Below, one piece after another: positions 1,432 to 45,852 of a stretch of DNA of 64,000 bases. Positions within the stretch are counted from its first letter, which is position 1. Each line of letters begins with the position of its first letter. The notes under the pieces were generated by a model. That model saw nothing but the letters and a program-made list of their open reading frames with translations. It was not told the DNA's origin and searched no databases. Source of the DNA: Desulfobulbus propionicus (GTDB taxonomy: Bacteria > Desulfobacterota > Desulfobulbia > Desulfobulbales > Desulfobulbaceae); assembly GCA_002747135.1 (NCBI GenBank), contig PDTE01000024.1:1-64000 (forward strand). The letters are read 5' to 3'. Made by a program: the position numbers and the translations under genes.

Positions 1432-1586
1432 ATAACTGATCACCGGTACTTCATCTTTGCCCGAGCACTCTTTCCCGCATACTCTTGTCCAGCGAAAAAG
1501 AGTGCTTGCCCGATTCTGTTGCACCCGTGACCAATTAGGTCAGAACCAGAGAATAACATCCAGGCACAAACCCCGTGATTGGTTAC
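1432..1586 (-). repeat. Family B MITE-like repeat with near-perfect 8-bp target duplication
   Basis: This 155-bp unit runs from ataactgatcaccgg to ccgtgattggttac, so its ends are inverted copies of GTAAC(T/C)nATCAC. It is flanked by GATAATAG (1424-1431) and GATAATAA (1587-1594), a 7-of-8 direct repeat expected from transposition. ORF 1440-1625 in the track is only this repeat read through and is not a gene. Confidence 0.8.
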
Positions 1587-5403: not shown

Positions 5404-5561
5404 ATACCTGCTCCCATCTCACTTACCTTCAGACGAGTATGACTGGCAACATAGAGGAGCTCTAACTGCCAGGCGCGCTTGCCCAGATTCAGGTGAGCTG
5501 AAAACAGATACAGACGTAAAGCAAATGAAATCAGGGTGGTATATGCCCTGTGAGTAGTTAA
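5404..5561 (-). repeat. Family A' MITE between gyrB and gyrA, perfect 8-bp TSD
   Basis: This 158-bp unit is inverted relative to the gyrA-side copy. It runs from atacctgctccc to gagtagttaa and includes the block caggcgcgcttgcccagatt. Both flanks carry GTAAAAAC (5396-5403 and 5562-5569), an exact 8-bp direct repeat. The left copy starts one base after the gyrB stop codon. Confidence 0.88.
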
Positions 5562-5580: not shown

Positions 5581-8055
5581 ATGACAGATTTGTCTGATTT
5601 TACAGAAAAAAATACCCCAACTATATCAATAGAAAAAGAGCTGCGTAAATCCTATTTGGATTATGCAATGTCAGTTATTATTGGTCGAGCCCTGCCAGAT
5701 GTCAGAGACGGCCTCAAGCCGGTTCATCGCCGTACCCTGTATGCAATGCGTGAACTTGGTAATACCTTTAACAGACCATATATAAAATCAGCCCGAATTG
5801 TTGGGGATATAATAGGTAAATACCATCCCCATGGGGATACAGCTGCCTATGATACGCTTGTGCGCATGGCGCAGGTTTTTTCCATGCGCTATCCTCTTGT
5901 GGACGGCCAGGGTAACTTTGGTTCCATGGATGGCGATTCAGCTGCGGCAATGCGTTATACAGAAGCCAGGATGACCAGGCTTGATCAGGAAATAATTGCT
6001 GACCTGGGCAAGGATACCGTAGATTTTGTTCCTAATTATGATAATTCCCTGCAGGAGCCTGCAGTGCTTCCTGCAAAGATACCAAATATTCTCATTAATG
6101 GATCAGAAGGAATTGCGGTTGGTATGGCTACAAAGATACCTCCCCACAATTTAACCGAGGTCATTAATGGTCTTTTTGCCTTAATTGAAGATCCCAGTGT
6201 GAGTATTCATAAACTCATGGAGATAATCACTGGTCCGGACTTCCCCACAGGTGGTTTTATCTGCGGACGGGCAGGTATAAGAGAAGCTTATGAGACAGGC
6301 AGAGGAGTGATAACAGTTCGTTCACGCAGTCACATAGAGCAGAGAGGAAAAAATGGGGAATCAATAGTTATTACCGAAATTCCTTATCAGCAGAACAAGG
6401 CTGCTCTGGTGGAAAAAATAGCCATGCTTATGAAGGAAAAACGGCTGACTTCCATCGCAGAGATTCGTGATGAATCTGATCGCCAGGGTGTTCGTATCGT
6501 CATTGATCTGAAAAAGGATGAAATACCTGATATTATCCTCAACCAGCTTTATAAAATGACGCCGCTGCAAAAAACCTTTGGTATCATTTTGCTTTGTATA
6601 GTGAACAATAAACCGGAGATTCTCAATCTTAAACAGGTTTTAGAACACTTCCTGGCCCATCGCCGCACAGTTGTTTATCGAAGAACAGCGTATGAGTTGA
6701 GAAAAGCGGAAGAAAAAGCTCATGTCTTGGAAGGGTTAAAAATTGCCATAAGCAATCTTAATGAAGTCGTTGAATTAATAAAAGCGGCAGCAAATCCGGC
6801 AGAAGCCAGGGAACAACTCATAAGGCGTTACGAGCTATCAGAAATACAAGCTCAGACTATCTTAGATATGCGTCTGCAGCGACTGACAGGTCTTGAACGT
6901 GATAAAATAATCCAGGAATATAAAGAGATAATTGAAAAAATTGGATGGCTGAAAAAGGTCCTTAATGATGATACACTGATTATTCAGATCATTCGAAAGG
7001 AATTTGAAGAGATAAAAAATACTTATGGAGACGGACGCCGAACCGAAATTATTGACGCTCCGGATGATATTCTTCCTGAAGATCTGATTATTCCTGAGGA
7101 AATGGTCGTTACGGTTTCCCATACAGGTTATATAAAGCGTAATCCTCTTAATCTTTACAGGGCACAGAAAAGAGGCGGTAAAGGTGTAAAAGGAATGACC
7201 ACACTGGAAAATGACTTTGTCACCAGTTTGTATACAGCCTCAACTCTTGATACCTTTCTCTTTTTTACCAACACAGGACGGGTGTTCTGGCGTAAGGTAT
7301 ATGAACTGCCACTGGCAGGTAGAGCAGCACGAGGCAAGGCCATTGTTAATCTGCTTGAATTGGGTAAAGAGGAAAAAGTCGCAGCTATCCTGCCTGTTGC
7401 AGACCTCGCAAATGCAGAAGATTCACAGACCGTGCTGACGGTTACAAAGCTTGGCCGGGTGAAAAAAACATCCATAGCCGAATATAAACGACCTCTTCGT
7501 AAAGGAAAATACGGTCTGACTATCAAAGATGAGGATGAAATAATTACCGCAGCTATAACATCTGGAAATGATGAAATATTTTTGGTTACCAGAAAAGGAA
7601 TGTCCATACATTTTCATGAATCTGATGTTCGGGTTATGGGAAGGCTCGCTTCTGGTGTTAAAGGAATCACTTTAGGCGATGACGATGTAGTGGTGGGTGT
7701 TGCTGTACTCAAGAGTGACGACTCCATCCTCACTGTTACAGAAAACGGCTATGGAAAGCGTACAGCCGTTTCAGAATACAAAATACAGACCAGAGGCGGA
7801 AAAGGAGTATATACCATAAAAACCAGTGAGCGTAACGGCAACGTTGTTGGGGTGCTGGCTGTAGATGATGAAGATCAGGTTATGCTTATTGCTAACTCTG
7901 GCAAGGTAATACGGATGGCCATGGATAACGTTCGTATAATTGGTCGAAACACGCAGGGGGTCAGACTGATAAACCTTGATGAAGAAGAAAAGGTGGTGGC
8001 TCTTTCCATGCTTGTCAAGGAAGACGAGGTAGAGGAAGAAATGGAAGAAAGATAG
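5581..8055 (+). CDS. gyrA: DNA gyrase subunit A
   Basis: This is the DNA-cleaving and rejoining subunit of gyrase. The winged-helix part carries [17 protein letters not shown], corresponding to the quinolone-resistance region with Thr at the E. coli Ser83 position and Asp retained at the Asp87 position. The catalytic Tyr lies in [10 protein letters not shown] near residue 126. The C-terminal beta-pinwheel contains the GyrA-box-like AQKRGGKG, which supports supercoiling gyrase rather than topoisomerase IV. The 824-residue length is usual. The stop codon TAG straddles the target duplication and first base of a downstream family A repeat. gyrB lies 185 bp upstream. Confidence 0.98.
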
Positions 8056-8212
8056 TACCTGCTCACTGGGTGTGTAACTCTCTGGTTTTACCTACCTCAA
8101 ACGTGTAACTGCTCTCAGGCTGCCCCTATCTGGTCAAGCACGATTGGCAGCTATAGCCCCTCTATGCGGCGGGTCGTGATCGTGCAAAGAGGGGTGAGCG
8201 GTGAGGAGTTAC
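8055..8212 (+). repeat. Family A MITE at the gyrA stop codon, perfect 8-bp TSD
   Basis: This 158-bp unit has the order outer end gtacctgctcactgggtg, a 50-bp arm, the inner end motif gtaactgctctcagg, the core, and the right end gaggagttac. GAAAGATA flanks it on both sides (8047-8054 and 8213-8220). The identity continues into gtacctgctca on the right because the target itself abutted an older repeat end. Confidence 0.9.
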
Positions 8213-8251
8213 GAAAGATAGTACCTGCTCAAAAGGGTACCGGTACAATCC

Positions 8252-17169: not shown

Positions 17170-17327
17170 GTAACTACTCACTGGGTGTGTAACGCTCTGG
17201 TTTTACATACCTCAAACGTGTAACTGCTCTCAGGCTGCCCCTATCTGGACAAGCACGATTGGCAGCTATAGCCCCTCTATGCGGCGGGTCGTGATCGTGC
17301 AAAGAGGGGTGAGATGTGAGGAGTTAC
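17170..17327 (+). repeat. Family A MITE between ruvC and ruvA (type copy), 8-bp TSD
   Basis: This is the clearest 158-bp copy. The outer end gtaactactcactgggtgtg is followed exactly 50 bp later by the second end motif gtaactgctctcaggctgcc; then come the hairpin-forming core and the right end gtgaggagttac. Flanks are AGCTTAAG (17162-17169) and AGCTTAGG (17328-17335), 7 of 8 identical. Confidence 0.9.
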
Positions 17328-19141: not shown

Positions 19142-19187
19142 GTACCTACTCACTGGGTGTGTAACGCTCTGCTTGTACCTGCCTCAA
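19142..19187 (+). repeat. Family A left-arm fragment overlapping the mnmA 3' end
   Basis: gtacctactcactgggtgtg followed by taacgctctgcttgtacctg matches the outer 46 bp of family A. The core and right end are missing. On the minus strand it encodes the last residues and stop codon of mnmA. Confidence 0.8.
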
Positions 19188-20208
19188 TTATGCCACTGCC
19201 TATAAGAGTATCTTTCTCGTAAAAGGCGGCAAACTGTCCCGGGGTGATGGCTCGCTGCGCCTTTTTAAAGGTTACAACGACCTTGTTTTTCTCTCTGATA
19301 TCCAGCTGCGCCCATGCTGGTTTATGGGTCGAACGCAGCTGAATTTTTCCTTCCCAGGGAAATGAAGCCGGCCTGGCAAACCAGTGTAAGCTTGAAAGAG
19401 AAAGCGATCGCGTAAACAGTTCGCTTTCTTTTCCCACTTTAACTTGATTGCTGTGGATGTCAATTCCGGTTACATACCATGGGGTTGCATCCGGCAGGCC
19501 CAGACCTTTTCGCTGGCCGATGGTATAGTGGGCAACGCCCTTGTGAGTACCAAGCCTTTGTCCGGCAGGACCAATAATAGAACCAGGTTTTTCAAGACAG
19601 CCGTATTCCTGCAGAAAAGAGCGCAGATCACCATTCAAAAAGCAGACATCCTGGCTTTCTTTTTCTGGAAAATCAAAGCCAGTCTGTGCTGCTTTTTGGT
19701 ATACATCTCGTTTTAACCAATGACCAAGAGGAAAGACCAGACAAGCTAGCTGTTTAGGGGGCAGTCTGCATAAAAAATACGATTGATCTTTTGTGGTATC
19801 ACGTGCGCGGGCAAGAACTGGTTTGCTGCCAGAACGTTTTAATATGGCATAATGACCGGTAGCGCAAAGTTCCATGCCTTGTCTGTGCATAGCATCCAGC
19901 AACAAGTTACCTTTGATCTTTTTATTACAGATGACGCATGGGTTTGGCGTCAGCCCCTGGTTATAGGTGGTGAGAAGATAGGTTATGACGTGTCGGTGAA
20001 ATTGTTCTCTAAGATCGACGAGATGCAGAGGGATGTCCAGCTGCCGTGCTCTTCTGGCTGCCAGCCTGGTCTGTTTTTGCAGATCAGGTAAGGGGAGCTG
20101 CATGAAAAAACCATGCACGTCATACCCTTTTTCCTGCATGAGGATAGCCGCAACTGTTGAATCAATCCCGCCACTTAAGGCTATGCCAGCTTTAATCCGC
20201 TGGTTCAT
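19150..20208 (-). CDS. mnmA: tRNA-specific 2-thiouridylase MnmA
   Basis: MnmA thiolates U34 of the tRNAs for Lys, Glu and Gln. The PP-loop SGGIDST is at residue 13. One catalytic Cys lies in NPCVICNKKIKG and the second in DQSYFLCRL. The ATP and tRNA-binding regions TGHYA and YTIGQRKGLG are present. The 352-residue length is normal. The natural ending is near GSGIIEA; the last residues (GTSRALHTQ) and the stop come from a family A repeat arm, so the C-terminus has been replaced by mobile DNA. The gene is convergent with ruvB. Confidence 0.95.
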   Translation of the reverse strand: MNQRIKAGIALSGGIDSTVAAILMQEKGYDVHGFFMQLPLPDLQKQTRLAARRARQLDIPLHLVDLREQFHRHVITYLLTTYNQGLTPNPCVICNKKIKGNLLLDAMHRQGMELCATGHYAILKRSGSKPVLARARDTTKDQSYFLCRLPPKQLACLVFPLGHWLKRDVYQKAAQTGFDFPEKESQDVCFLNGDLRSFLQEYGCLEKPGSIIGPAGQRLGTHKGVAHYTIGQRKGLGLPDATPWYVTGIDIHSNQVKVGKESELFTRSLSLSSLHWFARPASFPWEGKIQLRSTHKPAWAQLDIREKNKVVVTFKKAQRAITPGQFAAFYEKDTLIGSGIIEAGTSRALHTQ

Positions 20209-20425
20209 GATGCCTGTATCGGGATAGCTTGCCGCCCCTGCTCATAACGCTGGACAGCTTTGTGAGAGACTCCTGGCAGTCCGGCAGGTTGTCTTTCGGT
20301 GCTGCCAGGTCTGGTTCTGGCTGCAGCAAATCTGTAACGGTTCATCTCTTTTTGTCTCCGGGTGTTAAAAAGAGTACGTGACTATGGACAGGGTGATACA
20401 TATCCTGTGATAGTTACGATAGAGC
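20209..20425. other. Non-coding gap with a family A' end fragment
   Basis: The first part, upstream of mnmA, shows no convincing ORF. Near 20385-20417, gacagggtgatacatatcct followed by gtgatagttac is a degenerate family A' terminus. It is separated by exactly eight bases (gatagagc) from the IS66 terminal repeat at 20426. Confidence 0.5.
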
Positions 20426-20700
20426 GTAACTATTCACCCCTATCAGGGTAAATCTGTCCAGCAAGGGTCATGTGGATAGCGACCAGTGGGTTGTACCCTT
20501 TCTTCGCCATGGTTTGCAGGTAGCTGGTGATACGGTAGCAGGTTTTGGCGAACTTTATTGTCCTGAACCATGACGACAGTGATCACAGGAAAGATACGAT
20601 TGCCAGCAGTCATGGATAATAACCCCGCCATAGGGTGGGATAATGCCAATTTGTTCAATTGCTTCGAGTTCCCGTTCAGGACGGACTCACTATGATGTCA
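20426..20700 (-). pseudogene. IS66-family transposase 3' remnant with terminal inverted repeat
   Basis: Reading the minus strand in two frames recovers the C-terminal part of an IS66 (TnpC, COG3436) transposase: IPPYGGVIIHDCWQSYLS, then after a deletion ITSYLQTMAKKGYNPLV and AIHMTLAGQIYPDRG. These match the HDxW and SxxRKQGxN-type segments of the family. The stop codon TAG lies inside GTAACTATTCACCCC (20426-20440), which is the element end. IS66 ends begin GTAA and generate 8-bp duplications. The 5' two thirds, tnpA and tnpB are gone. ORF 20443-20658 is one frame of this remnant. Confidence 0.7.
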
Positions 20701-20817
20701 AAAAAATTCTTTGCTCAACAATCTGCTGGAATGTACAGTGTTGAATTGAGTACGATGATTGATGAGGGGAAGGAGAGTGAGTGATTACTATAATATATAC
20801 AAATGGTTACCCTGTTT

Positions 20818-20975
20818 GTAACTACTCACTGGGTGTGTAACTCTCTGGTTTTACCTACCTCAAACGTGTAACTGCTCTCAGGTTGCCCCTATTTGGCCAA
20901 GCACGATTGGCAGCTATAGCCTCTCTATGCGGCCGGTCGTGATCGTGCAAAGAGGGGTGAGATGTGAGGAGTTAC
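20818..20975 (+). repeat. Family A MITE, near-complete
   Basis: This 158-bp copy runs from gtaactactcactgggtgtg to gaggagttac, with the second end motif 50 bp in. Its flanks are ccctgttt and cctgttct, which share CCTGTT with a one-base offset and look like a slightly eroded 8-bp duplication. The 117 bp before it hold no recognisable gene. Confidence 0.85.
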
Positions 20976-27157: not shown

Positions 27158-27315
27158 GAAACCAATCACGGGGCCTGTACTTTAAGTGTTATTCTCTACT
27201 TCTGACGTGTAACTGGTCATGGGTGCAACAGAATTGGGCAGGGACCCTTTTCCGCTCTCCAGGAGTATGCGGGAAAGAGTGATCGGGCAATGATGAAGTG
27301 CCTGTGATCAGTTAC
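27158..27315 (+). repeat. Family B repeat, complete
   Basis: This 158-bp unit runs from gaaaccaatcacggggcctg to gtgatcagttac, with the inner end motif gtaactggtcatgggtgc about 51 bp in. No clear target duplication remains. It fills the gap between nrdR and rpiB. Confidence 0.82.
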
Positions 27316-27842: not shown

Positions 27843-28113
27843 CTACCTACTCACAGGTCGTATAACCTCTTTGTTTTACAAGATTTACGGTAACTGCTCT
27901 CAGGCTGCCCCTATTTGGACAAGCACGATTGGCAGCTATAGCCCCTCTATGCGGCGGGTCGTGATCGTTCAAAGAGGGGTGAGATGTGAGGAGTTACGAT
28001 TTACGTATGTAATTGCTTTCAGATACCCCATATTTGGGTAAGTGGACTGACAAACAGGTTCCATATGAAGACAATCGTGAACATCCGAAAATGGATGAGC
28101 TGGGAACAGTTAC
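27843..28113 (+). repeat. Older family A' repeat split by a nested copy; its end provides the fabF stop codon
   Basis: The outer element runs from ctacctactcacaggtcgta to gagctgggaacagttac. It is interrupted by the 108-bp core copy at 27890-27997 plus an 8-bp duplication. Removing those leaves 155 bp, the usual element size. The terminal gttac contains the reverse complement of the fabF TAA stop. Confidence 0.8.
27890..27997 (+). repeat. 108-bp family A core MITE, nested, perfect 8-bp TSD
   Basis: The unit runs from gtaactgctctcaggctgcc to gatgtgaggagttac, without the 50-bp outer arm. GATTTACG is present on both sides (27882-27889 and 27998-28005). This defines the minimal mobile unit and its exact ends. 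Confidence 0.92.
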
Positions 28114-29663: not shown

Positions 29664-29763
29664 CGTAACTACTCGTAGGGCATATAATTCCCTTATTTCA
29701 CTTGATTTTAAGCATGCAGCTGCTTTCAGGTTGCCCGAAGATGGGCGGCCTGGGAGCAGATAC
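29664..29763 (+). repeat. Family A' repeat, internally deleted, between acpP and fabG
   Basis: The sequence starts gtaactactcgtagggcata and carries the inner motif (agctgctttcaggttgcccg), then jumps to the right end tgggagcagatac. The hairpin core is missing. Confidence 0.65.
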
Positions 29764-36529: not shown

Positions 36530-36775
36530 GATACAGCCCCCAGTGCAAGATAAAAAAGAATTGCGTAAAAATATATATCTTACACAAAAAAAAAAGAGAA
36601 AGCCAGTGAAAATATGACCAAAGTATATAACCATTTAATAAAAATAGAGATATTCATACAATGATTTGTAAGTCAATAAGAGGGTGCGGGAAAGGGTGAC
36701 CGTACAAAGAAAAGAGGTACATGCCCTGCGGGCAGTTATGTTACAATACAACAAGGGAAGAAGCCTGAAGCAGCC

Positions 36776-36952
36776 AGTAACGGGGTCTGTGTTTCCCCGT
36801 GATTCTCTGTTTCTGACGTGTAACTGGTCACGGGTGCAACAAAGTGGACAAGCACCATGTCCCGCAGGTAAGCAGGCGAAGTGAGACGTTCGTGTACAGG
36901 AGTAGGCGGGCAATGGTGATCAGGCAAGGATGAAGTGCCCGTGATCTGGTAC
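36776..36952 (+). repeat. Family B repeat, long variant
   Basis: It starts gtaacggggtctgtg, has the inner motif gtaactggtcacgggtgcaa, then an extra block gcaggtaagcaggcgaagtg followed by agacgttcgtgtac that is absent from the 1432 copy, and ends gtgatctggtac. Upstream, at 36700-36741, gtacatgccctgcgggcagt is a family A' end. The 338-bp gap is therefore repeat throughout. Confidence 0.75.
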
Positions 36953-45503: not shown

Positions 45504-45687
45504 GTAACCAATCACGGGGACTGTATTTTTGTGTTATTCTCTGTTTCTGACGTGTAACTGGTCACGGATGCTTAAGAATTGGGCAGGCATTCTTCCCCGC
45601 AGGTAAGCAGGCGAAGTGAGACGTTCGTGTACAAGAGTATGCGGGAAAGAGTGATCAGGCAAAGATGAAGTGCCTGTGATCAATGAC
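45504..45687 (+). repeat. Family B repeat, long variant, at the original gmd 3' end
   Basis: The unit runs from gtaaccaatcacggggactg to gtgatcaatgac, with the inner gtaactggtcacggatgc and the extra block gcaggtaagcaggcgaagtg. Its right end would have supplied the gmd stop codon before the family A insertion at 45695. Confidence 0.8.
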
Positions 45688-45694
45688 TCTTGTC

Positions 45695-45852
45695 GTACCT
45701 ACTCACAGGGTGTGTAACTCTCTGGTTTTACCTGCCTCAAACGTGTAACTGCTCTCAGGCTGCCCCTATCTGGACAAGCACGACTGGCAGCTATAGCCCC
45801 TCTATGCGGCGGGTCACGCTCGTGCAAAGAGGGGTGAGCGGTGAGCAGTTAC
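45695..45852 (+). repeat. Family A MITE inserted in the gmd 3' end, perfect 8-bp TSD
   Basis: This 158-bp copy runs from gtacctactcacagggtgtg to gtgagcagttac. CTCTTGTC flanks it at 45687-45694 and 45853-45860. The terminal gttac provides the gmd TAA stop (45849-45851). Confidence 0.92.

What the first reader, a model, noticed from the sequence alone, without database searches (positions are those of the whole stretch)
20426..20700. An IS66 transposase remnant shares the repeat termini, identifying a likely parent
Seen: the decayed transposase ends inside GTAACTATTCACCCC, closely matching the MITE end GTAACTACTCACTGGG. Exactly eight bases (gatagagc) separate it from another repeat end (gtgatagttac). 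Known: IS66 elements have ends starting GTAA and make 8-bp duplications, the same size as found around the repeats. Inference: families A, A' and B are IS66-derived and were mobilised in trans.
Basis: partly seen in the sequence, partly recalled or inferred. Interest (0 to 1): 0.8.

Follow-up and report, generated by a model that had tools for sequence, protein, structure and literature searches.

The report
IS66 relic shares miniature-transposon ends
A broken jumping-gene enzyme of the IS66 family ends in the same short sequence as hundreds of tiny repeats in this bacterium, and intact IS66 elements in related bacteria confirm that the repeats are very probably miniature transposons once moved by IS66 enzymes, though the broken copy here is probably a cousin of their parent rather than the parent itself.

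Summary
The finding is largely right. Window 20426-20683 holds a decayed IS66 TnpC (internal deletion, frameshift, catalytic Glu region lost) whose stop codon lies inside GTAACTATTCAC. Two other IS66 relics in this MAG end the same way. Intact relatives carry GTAACTACTCAC at both ends with perfect 8-bp duplications (20 or more copies in one complete genome of the same family). The repeats are real transposons: 37 elements in 461 kb have GTAAC ends plus exact 8-bp duplications, against 0-2 in shifted controls.

Three corrections. (1) This relic matches the repeats only over the terminal 12 bp; beyond that CCCC faces TGGG/AGGG. (2) A second single-ORF IS66 clade (sub2, ends GTAACYRATCACRGGGT, 1546 bp, 8-bp duplication, intact in relatives) fits family B and the left ends of A and A' better, so 'parent' should read 'IS66 family', not this element. 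(3) Repeat interiors share nothing detectable with any IS66, so mobilisation in trans is supported but descent by internal deletion is not shown. The 8-bp spacer is real but is not a target duplication of the relic. No intact IS66 was found in this 69%-complete MAG. A good member of a known kind: IS-powered MITEs.

The parts
20433..20555 (-). C-terminal piece of a decayed IS66 TnpC (FAKTCYRITSYLQTMAKKGYNPLVAIHMTLAGQIYPDRGE*)
   Evidence: 53-62% identical to IS66 C-termini of same-genus genomes G002 and G003, 72-74% to two other relics in the same genome
20558..20683 (-). Middle piece of the same TnpC (RPERELEAIEQIGIIPPYGGVIIHDCWQSYLSCDHCRHG), joined to the C-terminal piece by a deletion of about 130 codons and a frameshift
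   Evidence: up to 76% identical to intact IS66 TnpC of another Desulfobulbaceae MAG; NF033517 transpos_IS66 E 6e-4 for the joined pieces
20426..20440 (+). Right terminal inverted repeat of the IS66 relic, GTAACTATTCACCCC, overlapping the tnpC stop codon
   Evidence: same end in relics at C40 and C44 of the genome and in intact IS66 copies
20777..20788 (-). Possible left end of the relic (GTAATCACTCACTCTCC), 2 mismatches from the motif; no matching duplication
   Evidence: weak, only position and motif; the 105 bp between it and the coding remains has no detectable IS66 similarity
20370..20417 (-). Truncated A'-type repeat end (GTAACTA-TCACAGGATATGTATCACCCTG)
   Evidence: score 20.5 against shuffled maximum 14.5
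20418..20425 (.). 8-bp spacer gatagagc between the two outward-facing ends
   Evidence: not found as a duplication beside either element
20818..20975 (+). MITE family A, 158 bp, next to the relic
   Evidence: about 40 copies at 91-96% in this genome; own flanks match 4 of 8
8055..8212 (+). MITE family A with perfect 8-bp duplication GAAAGATA
17170..17327 (+). MITE family A, duplication 7 of 8
45695..45852 (+). MITE family A with perfect 8-bp duplication CTCTTGTC
5405..5560 (-). Diverged A-like element (67%) with perfect duplication GTTTTTAC
27890..27997 (+). 108-bp inner part of A with its own perfect duplication GATTTACG: the inner end-like motif at A +51 serves as an end
29665..29763 (+). 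A'-type element, 99 bp, perfect duplication TTTCTGGC
27160..27315 (+). MITE family B
   Evidence: 81% to the B reference
45504..45687 (+). MITE family B
1433..1586 (-). MITE family B
36774..36952 (+). MITE family B

Best explanation
Families A, A' and B are non-autonomous miniature transposons (MITEs), about 100-240 bp, that were moved by transposases of single-ORF IS66-family elements (ISBst12-like) acting on their GTAAC...TCAC ends and leaving 8-bp target duplications. The relic at 20426-20683 is the fossil 3' part of one such IS66 element, of a clade whose ends are GTAACTACTCAC. A second clade, with ends GTAACYRATCACRGGGT, is the better candidate mobiliser for B and possibly for A and A'. 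Shown: end identity, 8-bp duplications for both IS66 and MITEs, IS66 identity of the relic, intact IS66 copies with these ends in relatives. Inferred: that the transposase acted in trans, and which clade did it.
For: Relic is IS66: and the tree (groups with the clade of intact TnpC, nearest a Desulfobulbaceae MAG, support 93/70; only 15% of columns filled). Three of three relics of this clade in the genome end in GTAACTAYTCACCCC at the stop codon. Intact relatives: G080, 1692 bp, GTAACTACTCAC at both ends (one end with one mismatch in one copy), perfect 8-bp duplications at all 4 loci read; nearly all of the 42 GTAACTACTCAC motifs in G080 fit as ends of its IS66 copies by position (my reading). 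sub2: 1546 bp, 12/12 inverted repeat, perfect 8-bp duplications, PF03050 E 7e-31. MITEs: 22 of 51 full A copies have 8/8 duplications, mean 5.3 of 8 against a shuffled maximum of 3.0; 37 elements with exact 8-bp duplications against 0-2 in shifted registers and few at other lengths. End score: all 18 B ends are best scored by the sub2 profile. End types run in parallel in the family: GTAACTATTCAG on both IS66 (G081) and MITEs (G060, G082), and GTAAGCG on IS66 and on an 83-bp MITE.
Against: No intact IS66 in the held genome, so the mobiliser is not seen beside its clients; the MAG is 69% complete. Similarity between MITE and IS66 stops after 12-19 bp. The right ends of A and A' (GTAACTCCTCAC, GTAAGTACTCTC) are imperfect matches to every IS66 end found. 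G080, with its 20-plus intact copies, has no A-type ends at up to 2 mismatches.
Confidence: 0.82

Rival explanations
1. The MITEs were mobilised specifically by the relic's own clade (GTAACTACTCAC, CCCC-type IS66).
For: Exact 12-bp identity of A and A' left ends with this clade, including position 8 (C) where sub2 has A; three relics of this clade and no sub2 relic in the genome; the right end of A scores best with this clade.
Against: Subterminal bases: CCCC/ACCC in IS66, TGGG/AGGG in the MITEs; B ends differ at positions 6-8 and all fit sub2 better.
Confidence: 0.3
2. The MITEs were mobilised by the second IS66 clade (sub2, ends GTAACYRATCACRGGGT).
For: 15-16 of 18 terminal bases shared by A, A' and B left ends and by the B right end; same-genus G001 carries a sub2 relic ending in GTAACTGATCACAGG, identical to the B right end over 15 bp; intact copies in G087 and G091.
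Against: No sub2 gene or relic found in this genome (one search has no positive control of its own); A and A' differ from sub2 at position 8.
Confidence: 0.45
3. Another transposase family with 8-9 bp duplications, such as IS256, moved the repeats and the end match with IS66 is convergence.
For: Decayed IS256-type transposases exist in the genome (C36 and C9).
Against: No MITE-type end lies at the boundaries of these relics; on C36 the nearest are over 1 kb away; a 12-bp exact match plus shared duplication length is improbable by chance; DDE_Tnp_1 elements were not found.
Confidence: 0.05
4. The 8-bp spacing between the A' end and the relic's end marks insertion of one element into the other's target duplication, or a circle-like junction.
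For: Two other outward pairs are exactly 8 bp apart, C48:8212-8220 and C3:10916-10924; in both the spacer equals the duplication of the left element and the start of the same element follows, a tandem arrangement.
Against: Here the spacer is not repeated beside either partner and the partners are of different families; only a handful of neighbouring pairs exist, so one case may be chance.
Confidence: 0.25

Closest known systems
IS66 family, ISBst12 group (example ISDge4 of Deinococcus geothermalis, PMC12898284)
   Same: Single-ORF TnpC of about 450-510 aa, ends GTGACTACTCAGCA / GTAACTGCTCAGCA, 8-bp duplication, transposition observed; the intact relatives here have GTAACTACTCAC/G ends and 8-bp duplications
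   Different: The copy in the window is a 3' fossil; membership of the ISBst12 group was judged by organisation and ends, not by aligning with ISBst12 or ISDge4 themselves
Bacterial MITEs tied to an IS by shared ends, e.g. MITECca01 with ISCca4/IS982 (PMC9769881), MITEPye1 with IS1182 (PMC11578231), MITEPsy1 with ISPsy2 (PMC3189936)
   Same: Short, no gene, inverted-repeat ends like a co-resident IS, many copies or target duplications; the Cardinium case also comes with an eroded IS remnant that keeps the 3' end of the transposase gene
   Different: The partner is IS66; copy number is high (180 A-type ends in 1.3 Mb); no intact partner in the held genome; three related families, with an inner usable end in A

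Membership tests
IS66 family (the relic) | TnpC-type DDE transposase homology | tested here: met
   intact homologue hits PF03050 at 1e-38
IS66 family (the relic) | Termini beginning GTAA | tested here: met
   right end GTAACTATTCAC; left end only tentative (20788)
IS66 family (the relic) | 8-bp target duplication | tested here: not met
   no matching 8 bp around the relic, as expected for a truncated fossil; met in intact relatives of the clade. The relic is therefore filed as a fragment of an IS66 element, not as a complete member
IS66 family (the relic) | Complete D-D-E catalytic set | tested here: not met
   NNRAERDLRM region deleted in the relic; present in the intact homologue
MITE (families A, A', B) | Short, multicopy, no coding capacity for a transposase | tested here: met
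MITE (families A, A', B) | Terminal inverted repeats and target duplications of fixed length | tested here: met
   exactly 8 bp
MITE of IS66 | Ends matching an autonomous IS66 element | tested here: met
   12-16 terminal bases against two IS66 clades; intact partner found only in relatives
MITE of IS66 | Internal homology showing descent by deletion | tested here: not met
   no similarity beyond the termini
MITE of IS66 | Mobilisation in trans by the IS66 transposase | not testable with these tools
   needs a transposition assay

The most novel reading that the evidence does not exclude
A family-wide MITE system in Desulfobulbaceae tracks several IS66 clades, with MITE ends co-varying with the ends of the local IS66 clade (CAC, CAG, RATCACRGGG, GTAAGCG), and with bipartite MITEs that carry an extra inner end allowing a 158-bp or a 108-bp unit to move. 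This would be the first described IS66-powered MITE radiation.
Probability: 0.4. Interest if true: 0.55.

Novelty: new member of a known kind. Interest (0 to 1): 0.42.

Why it matters
IS66 transposition is poorly understood, and I found no paper in the library that ties MITEs to IS66. Hundreds of natural end variants with scorable 8-bp duplications, plus intact partners in relatives, would allow the ends recognised by single-ORF IS66 transposases to be mapped. For this genome it explains a very dense repeat population by an ordinary mechanism.

Tried and rejected
Pfam hmmscan of the two relic pieces gave nothing (too short); NCBIfam and tblastn identified them. Search for an intact IS66 in the own genome: none. 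A test for a general excess of 8-bp spacings between outward ends: too few pairs to conclude. A search for an autonomous IS66 with ends exactly GTAACTACTCACWGGG: the 20 places read in G001, G003, G023, G059 and G082 gave no IS66 gene. The relic in G017 with GTAACTACTCACTGG is a deletion joint, not a true TGG-type end. IS256 relics as parents: ends do not coincide. Plasmid search with A: no match. A first hmmscan of the intact TnpC by coordinates failed on a wrong frame and was redone with the protein letters.

Full report
What is there. The minus strand of 20426-20683 encodes two pieces of a transposase: RPERELEAIEQIGIIPPYGGVIIHDCWQSYLSCDHCRHG and FAKTCYRITSYLQTMAKKGYNPLVAIHMTLAGQIYPDRGE*, in different frames. 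The second ends in a TAG stop that lies inside the motif GTAACTATTCAC (20426, + strand). Against the intact homologue of genome G080 (507 aa), the pieces correspond to residues 295-331 and about 460-507; the stretch between, with the catalytic Glu motif NNRAERDLRM, is deleted. The joined pieces hit NF033517 transpos_IS66 at E 6e-4; the intact G080 protein hits PF03050 at 1e-38.

Same end on other IS66 copies. Two further relics of the same clade lie in the genome, C40:33767 and C44:3840, and both end in GTAACTACTCACCCC at the stop codon. No intact IS66 is in the held assembly. In relatives there are intact ones: G080 (same family, complete genome) has more than 20 copies of a 1692-bp element; at the four loci read the ends are GTAACTACTCACACCC and GTA(A/G)CTACTCACCCC with perfect 8-bp duplications. 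Of the 42 exact GTAACTACTCAC motifs in that genome, nearly all pair at 1692 bp around the IS66 genes (pairing read by eye from coordinates). Related elements in G030, G087 and G088 end in GTAACTACTCAGCC, also with 8-bp duplications. The published ISDge4, an active ISBst12-group IS66, has ends GTGACTACTCAGCA / GTAACTGCTCAGCA and an 8-bp duplication (PMC12898284).

The repeats are transposons. In 461 kb of this genome, 22 of 51 near-full copies of family A have an exact 8-bp duplication and 27 have at least 7 of 8; the mean is 5.27 of 8 against a maximum of 3.0 in 500 shuffles. A search for GTAAC-type ends, inverted repeat of at least 8 of 12 and exact 8-bp flanking duplication gave 37 elements; shifting the register gave 0-2, and duplication lengths of 7, 9 and 10 gave 3, 1 and 0. 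All but one (a 5.9-kb pair that looks like chance) are 94-384 bp, too short for a transposase. They fall into A (158 bp), A' (about 100 bp) and B (156-242 bp). A and B are 67% alike over 136 bp, and A and A' share both outer stretches, so they form one superfamily. The genome has 180 A-type ends at up to 2 mismatches, against 0 for the reversed pattern.

Which IS66. The relic's clade shares only the terminal 12 bp with A and A'; then CCCC or ACCC faces TGGG or AGGG. A second clade was found through a relic in same-genus genome G001 that ends in GTAACTGATCACAGGGGGCTC, identical to the right end of B over 15 bp. Its intact members in G087 and G091 are 1546 bp, encode one 481-aa protein (PF03050 E 7e-31), have 12/12 inverted repeats GTAACTAATCACAGGGTA and perfect 8-bp duplications. 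Scored with 18-bp profiles of four IS66 end types, all 18 B ends and the left ends of A and A' prefer this second clade, while the right end of A prefers the relic's clade (profiles were built by hand from the ends found, several of them without a verified duplication). The tree puts the two clades apart with strong support. So the statement that survives is 'IS66-family transposases', not 'this element'.

Descent. Outside the terminal 12-19 bp there is no convincing similarity between any MITE family and any IS66 element examined. The MITEs may be old deletion derivatives whose interiors drifted, or may have assembled from ends alone.

The 8-bp spacer. The outward-facing end at 20417 is a truncated A' end. 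The spacer gatagagc is not repeated beside either partner, and the region just beyond the relic's tentative left end reads tataatat, so it is not evidence of a target duplication here. Two other outward pairs exactly 8 bp apart do have a spacer equal to the duplication of the element on the left, followed by the beginning of the same element again: a tandem arrangement at 8055-8231 and at C3:10755-10970. With so few pairs I leave this open.

Rivals. IS256-type relics exist in the genome, but their boundaries do not carry these ends. DDE_Tnp_1 elements were not found. Other families with 8-bp duplications were not searched.

Taxonomy. This is inference.

Literature. Searches for IS66 with MITE terms returned papers that list IS66 among other families but none, in the passages read, that assigns a MITE to IS66. 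The library lacks most subscription papers and ISfinder itself was not available, so absence of a report is weak evidence of novelty.

Noticed in passing
window 19142-19187: The last dozen codons and stop of mnmA (ORF 19150-20208, minus strand) lie in a fragment of a family A end (89% over 46 bp): a MITE end apparently supplies the C-terminus of a tRNA-modification enzyme.
   Followed up: no
window 8055-8231 and C3:10755-10970 (L135): Tandem arrangement: duplication, element, duplication, then the start of the same element again (11 bp of A; about 48 bp of B) before the sequence changes.
   Followed up: partly
window 27890-27997; A +51 to +158: A and B carry an inner end-like motif near position 50; the 108-bp inner unit of A occurs alone with a perfect 8-bp duplication, so the MITEs seem to have two usable left ends.
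   Followed up: partly
family A, 51 copies in 461 kb: The first base of the 8-bp target is C or G in 36 of 51 copies while the middle is AT-rich, hinting at a target preference.
   Followed up: no
L094, L096, L097, L102: Some members of the relic's IS66 clade are about 2250-2280 bp between ends, some 600 bp longer than the 1692-bp form, with room for a further gene before tnpC; no exact duplication seen.
   Followed up: no
window 20818-20975: Family A folds as a long hairpin as RNA (-58.6 kcal/mol, z = -3.45 against shuffles), as its long inner inverted repeat implies; it could matter as RNA structure when transcribed.
   Followed up: no
G016, G025, G020, G028, G082: Other genera of the same family hold many repeats with GTAACTGRTCACAGGG-type or related ends, several with 8-bp duplications.
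   Followed up: partly
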